Source: Thermoproteota archaeon (GTDB taxonomy: Archaea; Thermoproteota; Thermoprotei_A; Sulfolobales; NBVN01). From it: a DNA stretch of 64,000 nucleotides. The notes under the pieces were generated by a model. The model had not been told where the DNA came from, did not search any database, and was given only the letters and a program-made list of their open reading frames with translations. A program made the translations under genes and the position numbers. Shown piece after piece: positions 1 through 60,505 of this stretch. The number at the start of each line of letters is the position of its first letter. The first letter of the stretch is position 1. Where the stretch lies: assembly GCA_030550455.1 (NCBI GenBank), contig JAUQPH010000005.1, forward strand, positions 1-64,000, read 5' to 3'.

Positions 1-1197
1 GAATCTAAAAGATAGAATTGAAAGCTTATCCCCGCACCGGAACCGAGCCACCCGCCCATCGAGAATCTAAAAGATAGAATTGAAAGTAGCGTTATGGCTT
101 AAGTTAATGCCATTCCTACAGTCCTCCAGGAATCTAAAAGATAGAATTGAAAGGGAGCACGAGGTTCTTGGCGACAAGCTTCACCGCCTTGGTACCCGAA
201 TCTAAAAGATAGAATTGAAAGAGCTCGGTGCTAGAAAGCTACATGTCTTCAGGGTCGTTCCCGCGAATCTAAAAGATAGAATTGAAAGATCGTGACCCCG
301 GGGATGGTGCGGCACGCTACGGCGGAGAGGAATCTAAAAGATAGAATTGAAAGTTGAGAGCTGGCTCCTCAGCTTGACCACCTCGTCCTCCCAGGAATCT
401 AAAAGATAGAATTGAAAGAATATAGTTGGTATCGTATAGAACCTTGAACACCTCCTCGAGAATCTAAAAGATAGAATTGAAAGCTTAGCCCTCCATACCT
501 CGTATAGCGCGAAGAGCTCCAGCGGGAATCTAAAAGATAGAATTGAAAGAATATAGTTGGTATCGTATAGAACCTTGAACACCTCCTCGAGAATCTAAAA
601 GATAGAATTGAAAGCTTAGCCCTCCATACCTCGTATAGCGCGAAGAGCTCCAGCGGGAATCTAAAAGATAGAATTGAAAGCCTCGAACTCCCGCTGAGTG
701 ACCAGAGACAGTAGCTTCACCAGAATCTAAAAGATAGAATTGAAAGCCTCTCTGGCGTCGAAGTCATCCCCCTGTATGGTGTAGAGAATCTAAAAGATAG
801 AATTGAAAGGTTTGTTCCGGAGGTCTGCTGTAGTGTGACCTTTATGCCGTAGAATCTAAAAGATAGAATTGAAAGTGTCCAGCCTCACCCCCTTCACCCT
901 CACGAACCTGACGAAGAATCTAAAAGATAGAATTGAAAGATCGGGGGATTGACTCCATACTACCCCCACCATAATAGAATTTCGAATCTAAAAGATAGAA
1001 TTGAAAGGAAATGCGTTAAGTTTAGAGAGAAAATCGATGAAGTGATGAAGAATCTAAAAGATAGAATTGAAAGTTTTTTCTTAGATCATTTGATAATGCT
1101 TTTACTACTTTATCGAATCTAAAAGATAGAATTGAAAGCCTTCCTCCTCCCGCTAGCTACGTCCGCTAGAACCGCTTGAATCTAAAAGATAGAATTG
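1..1197 (+). CRISPR. CRISPR array, repeat GAATCTAAAAGATAGAATTGAAAG (24 nt), 18 full repeats + 1 truncated terminal repeat, 18 spacers; array continues off the left edge
   Basis: Perfect 24-nt repeats start at 1, 63, 130, 198, 265, 330, 395, 460, 526, 591, 657, 723, 786, 852, 916, 984, 1050, 1115; a last repeat at 1178-1197 lacks the terminal AAAG. The ATTGAAAG 3' end is the usual archaeal crRNA 5'-handle sequence, so transcription is inferred left to right with the leader outside the window. Confidence 0.98.
395..656 (+). repeat. Tandem duplication of a 131-bp block (two repeat-spacer units) inside the CRISPR array
   Basis: 395-525 and 526-656 are identical, including both spacers (aatatagttggtatcgtatagaaccttgaacacctcctcga and cttagccctccatacctcgtatagcgcgaagagctccagcgg). 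Confidence 0.97.
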
Positions 1198-1716
1198 GGT
1201 GACTCATGCTACTTGTTTGTTTATCTGTCCTGAGTGTGGCTATCTTATGGTGGTAGTGTCTTCTTATAGATGTGATGTGTAGTGCGTTGTTTAACGTGTT
1301 GTATGGAACAGTATGCTTAGACTAATAGCCTGCAGTAATACCATAATACCGCAGCATGCATCGAGTGGGGTGGGTATTGAGCTAGGGTGAGGGTCCGCGA
1401 TCTCAGACTTCCTGCTTCCCTCGATGGGGGTCTTATCGACCACGTTCTAAGTTACGTAATGCTTAAAATAGGGGGTACGTTGGTGTATTTACTCTCTGTG
1501 TTGTTAGAGAGACCTCGAGTAAAGTTGTTGAGGTTGTTACGTCGTACTCTACTGAGTGGTTCAAGAGGGGTGCCGCATTCACTATCATACTAGAGCTAGA
1601 GAATTTAGAACCCGGTGTAGTAGGTACTTCTACACTAAGTTCGCAGCAGATAGCGCGAGAAGCCTGTAGAGACACTAGAGTTATAAGTTGCGAATAAGAA
1701 ACAGAAAGGGAGAGCA

Positions 1717-2729: not shown

Positions 2730-2963
2730 GTGTTCAAAATAAGGTATAGCAAAGATAAGAAACCCACACCAGCGCTGATAGGGTACGTAAACCTATACCT
2801 CAACAAATACTACCTAGACCTGTACATAGCCAAGGGCGTGGACACAGGAACACTACAGGAAGAAACACTTGCGACAACACTCGCACTAGGAATAGGAACA
2901 TCGAGAACAACAGGCTTCGAACACACCAAAATAACAACACCGACATCCGAGGTTCAGCTCTGA
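2730..2963 (+). pseudogene. remnant ORF ending ...TSEVQL-stop, directly abutting repeat copy A; C-terminal residue pattern shared with other TnpB-type remnants here
   Basis: ORF ends in EVQL*; other copies of the adjoining repeat are preceded by PGVQL*, CGVQLL*, NGVQLL*. Confidence 0.3.
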
Positions 2964-3212
2964 TACAGGTTTATATCGGTTGACTTCATCGCCTCATCTC
3001 TGTTTCCCCACGCATTGGTCTTGGGTCTGCGTTACTTTTGGGAGCGTTCAGGATGACCCCAGGCACATCACATCTTGAGTTCCTCGGGGAGAGCTGTCAT
3101 CTCGAGTCTCATAACGGCTCTCAACCCTACATCGAGATGCATCCACGTACCGCTACGCATAGAGTATTTATAAGCGTTTCTATCCATATCAACGAATGTG
3201 AGGCATGCACCT
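2951..3212 (+). repeat. Copy A of dispersed GVQL-stop element (candidate IS200/IS605 right end / omega-RNA-like scaffold)
   Basis: ggttcagctctgatacaggtttatatcggttgacttcatcgcctcatctc...ctcggggagagctgtcatct...cggctctc...tttataagcgtttctatccatatcaacgaatgtgag; clear similarity to 60080-60335 and 43716-43850. Hairpin GAGAGC/GCTCTC at 3089-3122. Confidence 0.75.
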
Positions 3213-13984: not shown

Positions 13985-14213
13985 TTCAGGCTTCACAACC
14001 GCTTACATCGGTCAATACTCGTGAAGAACTTGACAATGCGGAAATAGCCCAATGGAGAACAAAAGCTCCCCAGGGCTCTCCCCGAGCTACCCAAGGCGTG
14101 GAGTACTTAGTTCACCCCAAACGCCCTCGAGTTCGACGAAGTCGCAAGCGGGATGCGGGAAAACATGGGTGGGTAGCAGCATCACCTACTATAAACCCGT
14201 ATAGGAGCTGAAC
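13985..14213 (-). repeat. Copy B of dispersed GVQL-stop element
   Basis: Reverse complement: ggggttcagctcctatacgggtttatagtaggtgatgct...ttttcccgcatcccgcttgcgac...gggcgtttggggtgaac...gtagctcggggagagccctgg...attgaccgatgtaagcggttg. Confidence 0.65.
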
Positions 14214-14239
14214 CCCTATAGGTGACTAGAGAGTTGTCA

Positions 14240-17436: not shown

Positions 17437-17464
17437 TATCAACTAGAGAAAGCTGAAGCCTCAC

Positions 17465-17715
17465 GCAATTGTTTCAGTTTTCATGTAAGTTATTCTACCG
17501 TGGATTGAGCTCGCCCACAATGCGGGTACGTAGCAAAAACCCGAGTGGGTGGGGCATCCAAAGCCAGGATGTGGGGGTTTCCCCACGGTCATGAACCCGA
17601 GCTGAATGAGGGAGAGCTGTGTGTTGGGGTCACCCCGAGCGAGGGAGACCGACGATGTGGGTACTGACGAGGATGTCCCGAGGTCCGTGAAGCGAGGGGT
17701 TGACATCAAGTCACG
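17465..17715. other. GC-rich multi-hairpin element of unknown identity (candidate ncRNA or very divergent copy of the GVQL-stop element)
   Basis: Consecutive hairpins (gtgggggtttccccac; catccaaagccaggatg; cgggtacgtagcaaaaacccg). Reverse complement begins tagggtttgggtttcgtgttggttgacgtgacttgatgtc, weakly like the other copies. Confidence 0.4.
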
Positions 17716-33533: not shown

Positions 33534-33832
33534 GTCCGCAGGTTGTTTAGTTTTCGGTTTTTCTAATTATTTGGGTTACCTCCGTGGGCTTCGGGAGTCG
33601 ACCTAGAAGTATATAGATGACTGAGTGTTTTAGTAGCTAGGAGTCGGTGAGCCGTTAGCGAGGGACGGGCTCTGTGAACAACTCTTCACCGATGGCTCTA
33701 GGAAACCCGGTGAACCCCGAGAGCCGTAGGCGGGGAGAAGGAGTAGCCATGTGGGGTGAACCTGTGCCCAGTAAATCCAAAACAACAGAAATAACTAAAA
33801 CAACCACGTTGATGGGTGCGGGCAACCACTCC
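33534..33832 (+). repeat. Structured two-copy element, copy 1 (candidate ncRNA or MITE-like)
   Basis: Aligns along its whole length with the reverse complement of 51001-51303; 31-nt identical core gtgagccgttagcgagggacgggctctgtga (33647-33677); ends ggttgttt.../...aaacaacc can pair. Confidence 0.8.
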
Positions 33833-43459: not shown

Positions 43460-43635
43460 CGCTTAGTAGTAAGCTGTTGGTTTATCACAGTAGACCTCCT
43501 GAAACCGTATTTCGCATCTATTAGACGAGCCGCAGCCCAACATCTTGGTGGGGACTGCCTAAAGCAACTGTTTCGGGTTTCATATCCAAGGTGTGAAACA
43601 GATTGAAAGACTATGGCGATAGAGTACTAAAGTAG

Positions 43636-43731
43636 TGTAAGTGCGGATTCGCAGATGATAGAGACGTAATTGCGTGCATCAACATATTCCTATTCCTAAG
43701 ATGCTCAAGATGTGGGGTTCAGCTCTTATAA
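43636..43731 (+). pseudogene. TnpB C-terminal fragment (zinc-finger half and RuvC-III region)
   Basis: In-frame CKCGFADDRDVIACINIFLFLRCSRCGVQLL*; preceded in frame by a stop at 43633-43635. Confidence 0.8.
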
Positions 43732-43850
43732 AAGTTTATGTAAGTTAATGTCATCGCCTCATCTTTTCCACCGCATTCCGCTCGGGTTTTTATCGGGCTT
43801 AGAGACGTTCAGGGCGACCCCTAGCACCCCTAGCTTTAACACTACTGAAA
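43716..43850 (+). repeat. Copy E of dispersed GVQL-stop element, attached to the TnpB fragment
   Basis: gttcagctcttataaaagtttatgtaagttaatgtcatcgcctcatcttttccaccgcattccgctcgggtttttatcgggcttagagacgttcagggcgacccctagcacccc: nearly identical to copy F over ~75 nt. Confidence 0.85.
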
Positions 43851-51000: not shown

Positions 51001-51303
51001 GTGGTTGCCCGTGCCCATTAGCTAGGTTGTCGTAGTTGTTTTGTTTGTTTCGGTTTTCGGGCAAAGGTACACCCCACCTGTTCGTTCACGTCCTCCCCGC
51101 CTACGGCTCCGGGGGTTGCTGAGTCCCCAGAGCCGCCGGCGAAGAGTAGCTCACAGAGCCCGTCCCTCGCTAACGGCTCACTAGCTCATCGGCTCCTAAC
51201 TACCCAAACACCCGGTTTTCTGTACATATGTTTTATTAGTTCTGGGAATTCACAGAGATAACTCAAGTAACCAGAAAACCAAAAAGCAGACAACCTGTAG
51301 ACG
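51001..51303 (-). repeat. Structured two-copy element, copy 2
   Basis: Reverse complement aligns with 33534-33832; identical 31-nt core at 51151-51181; terminal ggttgtc/gacaacc pairing differs from copy 1 but is preserved. Confidence 0.8.
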
Positions 51304-59861: not shown

Positions 59862-60079
59862 GCTCTTCGATAGCTTACGGCTTATAGTTACGCTAAGGTG
59901 CGTATACTCCATTAGTAAAGTATCTACCTCAACTCAAAGTATCTCGCAGTACCGACGAACTTTGCAGATCTTGATAAAACAAGATAAAACAAATTGAAAG
60001 CGATCTAGCGATCGGAATTTCTTGATGAGCGACATAGAACCTATTGGAGCGATTGAGATCGGTCTCTACTCGAGCCAGG

Positions 60080-60335
60080 GGTTCAGCTCTGATGTAGGTT
60101 TATATTGGTTGATTTCATTGTCTCATCTCTTTCCCCCGCATTCCGCTCGGGTTTTCATCGGGCTTGGGGGCGTTTAGGGCGACCCCTAGCACCCCACATC
60201 TTAGATGTCTCGGGGAGAGCCACCATCTATACTATCAAACGGCTCTCGATCCCTCATCGAAGTACCTCCGCGTATATCACTATATAAGGTGTTTATAAGC
60301 GTCTCTATCAATACCAACCAATACAAACAAATATG
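60080..60335 (+). repeat. Copy F of dispersed GVQL-stop element
   Basis: ggttcagctctgatgtaggtttatattggttgatttcattgtctcatctctttcccccgcattccgctcgggttttcatcgggcttgggggcgtttagggcgacccctagcaccccacatcttagatgtctcggggagagcc...ggctctcg...; hairpin GAGAGCC/GGCTCTC 60215-60247. Confidence 0.8.
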
Positions 60336-60505
60336 AAAAACGAAACACCTTCACAAGGCATGACCATGAGTTCGCCCCAATTGGCAAACGCTAAGACCTC
60401 TGAACAAGACTGAATGCCTACGAAGATAATGCATCCTCATGCTTATGCTTTGAGGAGGAAAGATGGTGACGATAGCTCGCATAGATCGATGCTGGAGCCG
60501 AGCTC

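What the first reader, a model, noticed from the sequence alone, without database searches (positions are those of the whole stretch)
43636..43850. Direct link between the orphan repeat family and TnpB
CKCGFADDRDVIACINI is the second zinc-finger half plus the RuvC-III Asp motif of TnpB, ending CSRCGVQLL* exactly where the repeat core begins. An in-frame stop lies directly before the Cys and nothing recognisable remains upstream: the nuclease is dead but the 3' scaffold is well preserved (almost identical to copy F).
Basis: partly seen in the sequence, partly recalled or inferred. Interest (0 to 1): 0.7.

Follow-up and report, generated by a model that had tools for sequence, protein, structure and literature searches.

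The report
Dead transposon relic, right end flipped
This is the 274-base remains of a common archaeal jumping gene (IS607/TnpB type) that lost most of its nuclease gene and whose guide-RNA end was then flipped around; it explains the repeat family but is itself an ordinary dead relic.

Summary
The tnpB remnant is real: zinc-finger half plus RuvC-III Asp, joined to a genome-wide repeat. The join is not the native one. Intact 1.5-kb tnpB elements elsewhere in the genome read tnpB then right end (putative omega-RNA scaffold) in the same sense. Here the right end is inverted. The window reads LE 1-29 (43557-43585), element 1255-1383 in sense (43585-43718), then element 1497-1379 antisense (43714-43830). 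The breakpoints are GGGG and CCCC; the outer one is the transposon terminus. All 18 other tnpB 3'/RE copies examined keep the normal orientation. 'CSRCGVQLL*' is therefore an inversion junction, not a TnpB C-terminus. Upstream sequence is recognisable: first zinc knuckle and left end. The repeat family has about 40 copies, mostly 268-294-nt MITEs made of LE and RE of this element; their termini match elements carrying an IS607 serine transposase. The scaffold shows compensatory base changes. IS607 exchanges at GG, so an aberrant TnpA inversion is plausible but unproven. Similar MITEs are reported in Staphylothermus marinus. The repeat-TnpB link is correct; the locus is a dead, core-deleted, end-inverted relic. 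Interest is low.

The parts
43557..43585 (+). Left end (LE) of the transposon
   Evidence: 29 nt, 90% identical to LE positions 1-29 of the intact C9 element, E 2.8e-6; same LE precedes IS607 tnpA in G026
43585..43717 (+). tnpB 3' remnant: zinc finger and RuvC-III codons, with frameshift and TAG 43633-43635
   Evidence: element 1255-1383, 73% identity, E 3e-18; PF07282 22.3 bits
43663..43665 (+). GAC codon of the RuvC-III Asp
   Evidence: translation; placement through the intact homologue
43714..43717 (.). Inner breakpoint, GGGG
   Evidence: overlap of the sense and antisense blocks
43714..43830 (-). Inverted right end (RE), putative omega-RNA scaffold read on the minus strand
   Evidence: element 1497-1379 antisense, 83-85% identity, E about 1e-31; keeps 12 of 13 covarying pairs
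43827..43830 (.). Outer breakpoint, CCCC = transposon terminus; host flank starts at 43831
   Evidence: similarity to all copies stops here
60078..60359 (-). MITE of the same family (282 nt), LE and RE in normal order; comparison copy
2949..3184 (-). Degenerate MITE copy of the same family; comparison copy
   Evidence: 74% over 230 nt

Best explanation
The feature is a dead, non-autonomous relic of an IS607-type, tnpB-only insertion sequence, about 274 nt long. It once ran LE - tnpB - right end, with the putative omega-RNA scaffold overlapping the last ~40 codons of tnpB. Two rearrangements made the present form (shown by alignment): a deletion of positions 30-1254, fusing LE to the zinc-finger codons, and an inversion of the ~109-nt right end between a GGGG inside tnpB and the terminal CCCC. 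The gene also has a stop at a zinc-finger Cys and a frameshift. The relic now makes neither nuclease nor a scaffold in native order (inferred from sequence). The related repeats in this genome are mostly MITEs built from LE and RE of the same element, presumably moved in trans by an IS607 TnpA (inference). The inversion may be an aberrant TnpA exchange at GG or a simple short-inverted-repeat inversion; that step is not shown.
For: Three collinear blocks with one inverted, exact 4-nt breakpoints. All 18 other loci with tnpB 3' end plus RE, own genome and relatives, have the same-sense order. The exact junction sequence occurs only here among 98 genomes. Both halves are about equally diverged from their homologues, as expected for one element (0.70 and 0.78 against about 0.73 and 0.80 among the others). 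LE and CCCC terminus are shared with tnpA-bearing IS607 elements; no Y1 transposase in the genome.
Against: The ancestral non-inverted state at this very locus was not seen; no empty site was found. A nested insertion followed by deletion can give the same sequence. The window comes from a draft metagenome-like assembly in which copies of this family often lie at contig ends, so the junction deserves confirmation, although the scaffold sequence is unique (best match about 86%).
Confidence: 0.85

Rival explanations
1. Transposase-made inversion (a sub-hypothesis on mechanism): an IS607 TnpA exchanged the terminal CC/GG with a GG inside tnpB in inverted orientation and flipped the segment between them.
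For: One breakpoint is exactly the transposon terminus; only 2 of 68 possible arm pairs of 5 nt or more reach it. IS607 exchanges at GG, and its authors note that subunit rotation would give an intramolecular inversion (PMC6188088).
Against: A single case, judged after the event. A 5-nt inverted repeat (GGGGT/ACCCC) may suffice for a template-switch inversion. The same authors favour excision and insertion without rotation.
Confidence: 0.35
2. Nested insertion: a second copy inserted in opposite orientation at the GGGG of the tnpB relic, and the stretch from its internal CCCC to the first element's terminal CCCC was later deleted.
For: GG is the known IS607 target; CCCC at both places would serve as deletion microhomology.
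Against: Needs two events with coinciding ends instead of one; scaffold and tnpB halves look equally old; no trace of the second element's LE.
Confidence: 0.12
3. One reading: native tnpB 3' end followed directly by its own scaffold.
For: The two are adjacent, and the family link is real.
Against: The scaffold is in the opposite orientation to every other tnpB copy.
Confidence: 0.02
4. Assembly artefact: a tnpB relic wrongly joined to an inverted repeat copy.
For: Copies of this family lie at many contig ends of this draft.
Against: The scaffold here is a unique, diverged sequence, and homology ends exactly at the element terminus followed by host flank.
Confidence: 0.03

Closest known systems
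MITEs of Staphylothermus marinus, ~260 nt, linked to IS607-family elements with mostly one ORF (PMC2678158)
   Same: Thermophilic Thermoproteota (as far as the tnpB relatives show), similar size, multi-copy, derived from one-ORF IS607 elements
   Different: Sequence identity to them was not tested here; that paper ties them to the upstream region of the ORF and the passages I read do not mention a guide-RNA scaffold. The window relic keeps tnpB codons and has a flipped RE
PATEs of Haloquadratum (PMC3119063)
   Same: Transposase-free short elements formed by core deletion of tnpB transposons, ends retained
   Different: Derived from IS605-type elements with terminal palindromes, not IS607-type
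IS607-family insertion sequences (IS607, ISC1926; PMC6188088)
   Same: GG at the termini (CC on this strand), no evident target duplication, serine-recombinase tnpA in the relatives with the same ends
   Different: The window element has no tnpA, little tnpB, and an inverted right end
SisTnpB1 and its omega-RNA, Sulfolobus islandicus (PMC10640517)
   Same: tnpB with a hairpin-bearing scaffold at the 3' end followed by variable flank
   Different: IS200/IS605 type with AT-rich TAM; active nuclease; native order

Membership tests
TnpB (RNA-guided nuclease, PF07282) | Zinc finger and RuvC-III segment | tested here: met
   remnant 22.3 bits, just below the 26.3 cut-off; 73% to intact tnpB, E 3e-18
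TnpB (RNA-guided nuclease, PF07282) | Complete RuvC-I/II/III catalytic set in one open frame | tested here: not met
   positions 30-1254 missing; TAG 43633-43635 and frameshift. It is a pseudogene remnant
omega-RNA scaffold of TnpB elements | Conserved structured RNA overlapping the tnpB 3' end | tested here: met
   for the family: covariation 0.422 against 0.189 shuffled, 93% of cells paired, overlap with the tnpB 3' end. No expression data
omega-RNA scaffold of TnpB elements | Same sense as tnpB, guide = flank beyond the right end | tested here: not met
   window copy inverted
omega-RNA scaffold of TnpB elements | RNA made and bound by TnpB | not testable with these tools
   needs RNA data
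IS607 family | Serine-recombinase tnpA with the same ends | tested here: met
   for the family: G026 element with intact TnpA has matching LE and CCCC end; own C11 element likewise. Not in the window relic itself
IS607 family | GG (CC) at both junctions, no target duplication, GG in the empty target | tested here: inconclusive
   GCC at LE in 34-35 of 37 copies and CCCC at most REs, no repeated flanks seen; no empty site available
IS200/IS605 family | Y1 TnpA in the genome and an AT-rich motif before LE | tested here: not met
   no PF01797 match, genome 87.8% complete; no AT-rich motif before LE in 37 copies
MITE | Short, multi-copy, no ORF, ends of a known transposon | tested here: met
   for the family: 24 elements of 268-294 nt with both ends. 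The window relic is a single differently deleted copy, not a multiplied MITE

The most novel reading that the evidence does not exclude
The genome carries dozens of MITEs that each keep the covarying scaffold next to a different flanking sequence, while only a handful of tnpB copies remain intact. The MITEs could supply guide RNAs in trans to those few TnpB proteins and be protected from loss because TnpB cuts their empty sites. The window relic, with its scaffold flipped, would be a natural mutant that lost this.
Probability: 0.3. Interest if true: 0.5.

Novelty: new member of a known kind. Interest (0 to 1): 0.2.

Why it matters
It identifies an unexplained repeat family as the ends of an IS607-type tnpB element and warns that adjacency of a tnpB remnant and a scaffold does not prove native order. 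If MITE-borne scaffolds work in trans, they would form a dispersed set of natural guide RNAs, testable by sequencing RNA bound to TnpB. The relic itself matters little.

Tried and rejected
Rfam: no omega-RNA-like family matched at gathering scores, only 5S rRNA. RNAalifold on the MAFFT alignment found only a weak structure; the hairpins were found by pairwise covariation and counted on a structure I named, so that structure is derived from the same alignment and the score is to that extent favourable. Empty site in relatives: the downstream genes are conserved, but the hycI-side gene was not found in the stretches examined. A G002 near-match to the junction (2 mismatches) shows no tnpB remnant upstream. 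The genome-contig scan found only three tnpB relatives. Considered and rejected: a real TnpA-TnpB fusion in the C11 element (it crosses 100 N).

Full report
What is there. The window is part of a 1.65-Mb draft genome of 17 contigs, apparently of a thermophilic Thermoproteota archaeon: the relatives of its tnpB that carry names come from Thermoproteota and Bathyarchaeota metagenome genomes. At 43633-43717 the plus strand reads *CKCGFADDRDVIACINIFLFLRCSRCG. It matches the end of PF07282 with 21.5-22.3 bits, just under the cut-off, E 1.5e-4 for the remnant alone. An intact sister protein from the same genome scores 63.8 bits in Pfam and 94.7 bits in the guided_TnpB model, whose cut-off is 100. 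It aligns to solved Cas12f and TnpB chains through the same segment, which puts the D of RDV at the RuvC-III position.

The join is rearranged. Intact elements of 1495-1500 nt lie at C9 (two), C5 and C11. They start with a GCCT...CAACTGTTTCGG left end and end in GAGCTGAACCCC, with tnpB running into the right end; in the C9 copy L098 and in the C11 copy the stop lies at HQS*, inside the terminal sequence. Against the C9 copy the window gives three blocks: 43557-43585 = 1-29 (plus), 43585-43718 = 1255-1383 (plus), 43714-43830 = 1497-1379 (minus). Block 1 is the left end, so the region upstream is recognisable. Block 3 is the right end in reverse. Blocks 2 and 3 overlap by the breakpoint GGGG, and block 3 ends at CCCC, after which all similarity stops. 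A deletion plus one inversion explains everything. Eighteen other loci with both a tnpB 3' end and a right end, in this genome and in relatives, all have the same-sense order, so the inversion is derived. The exact junction AAGATGTGGGGTTCAGCTC occurs only here among 98 genomes.

Chance and mechanism of the inversion. In the pre-inversion order with 100-nt flanks, 68 inverted-repeat pairs of 5 nt or more lie within reach of each other, and 2 of them touch the transposon terminus. The observed use of the terminus suggests, but does not prove, a role of the transposase; it was judged after the event. The element type fits: the same left end and a CCCC right end flank IS607 elements with tnpA (G026:C7 with an intact frame of 231 aa; own C11 interrupted by an assembly gap). 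No Y1 transposase was found. IS607 enzymes exchange at GG without target duplication, and Chen et al. remark that subunit rotation on their complex would produce an intramolecular inversion (PMC6188088). Random short-repeat inversion and a two-step nested insertion remain open. The tnpB and scaffold halves are about as diverged from their homologues (0.70 and 0.78) as those homologues are from each other (about 0.73 and 0.80), which fits one element of one age.

The repeat family. A BLAST search with the 60080 copy gives 40 places in this genome. Twenty-eight elements with both ends were delimited: four full-length and twenty-four MITE-sized of 268-294 nt. The MITEs join the left end, a hairpin-forming middle and the right end. 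The right end shows paired changes in helices that I named from the covariation itself: columns 12-21 GC/UG/UA, 11-22 UG/GC/UA, 40-59 and 41-58 CG/GC, 42-54 CG/UA. The covariation score is 0.422 against 0.189 in shuffles and at most 0.158 in slid versions, and 93% of cells are paired. This supports a structured RNA, most simply the omega-RNA scaffold overlapping the tnpB 3' end, as described for SisTnpB1 (PMC10640517). The window copy keeps 12 of 13 pairs, which may only reflect ancestry.

Function. Shown: the nuclease is gone (RuvC-I and -II deleted, stop, frameshift) and the scaffold is not in native order. Inferred: the copy no longer transposes or guides. On the minus strand the flipped scaffold would be followed by the complement of tnpB codons in the guide position; nothing here suggests that such an RNA is made.

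Known or new. Staphylothermus marinus has 14 MITEs of about 260 nt tied to IS607 elements with mostly one ORF (PMC2678158), and Haloquadratum PATEs include core-deleted tnpB elements of IS605 type (PMC3119063). This family is a new member of that kind; sequence identity to the S. marinus MITEs was not tested. The flipped end is a curiosity. The one idea of wider interest, MITE-borne guides used in trans by a few TnpB copies, is untested.

Noticed in passing
window 394-655: A perfect 131-nt tandem duplication (two copies, 100% identical).
   Followed up: no
window 14085-14216 and 17458-17497: A degenerate right end and, separately, a left-end-like sequence of the same transposon family: further decayed relics.
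   Followed up: partly
window 33647-33702 and 51126-51181: A 56-nt, 89% inverted repeat pair 17 kb apart, a different sequence family.
   Followed up: no
L020 (G000:C5:110589-111023): A remnant of an IS607 tnpA HTH region lies directly beside a MITE right end, outside the MITE, as if the MITE had inserted into a tnpA gene.
   Followed up: no
contig ends of C1, C3, C5, C7, C9, C10, C14: Copies of this repeat family or its tnpB lie within about 0.3 kb of many contig ends, so they probably break the assembly.
   Followed up: no
L036 (G000:C11:6677-9835): One open frame joins an IS607 TnpA N-terminus to TnpB across a run of 100 N; an assembly gap, not a real fusion.
   Followed up: yes
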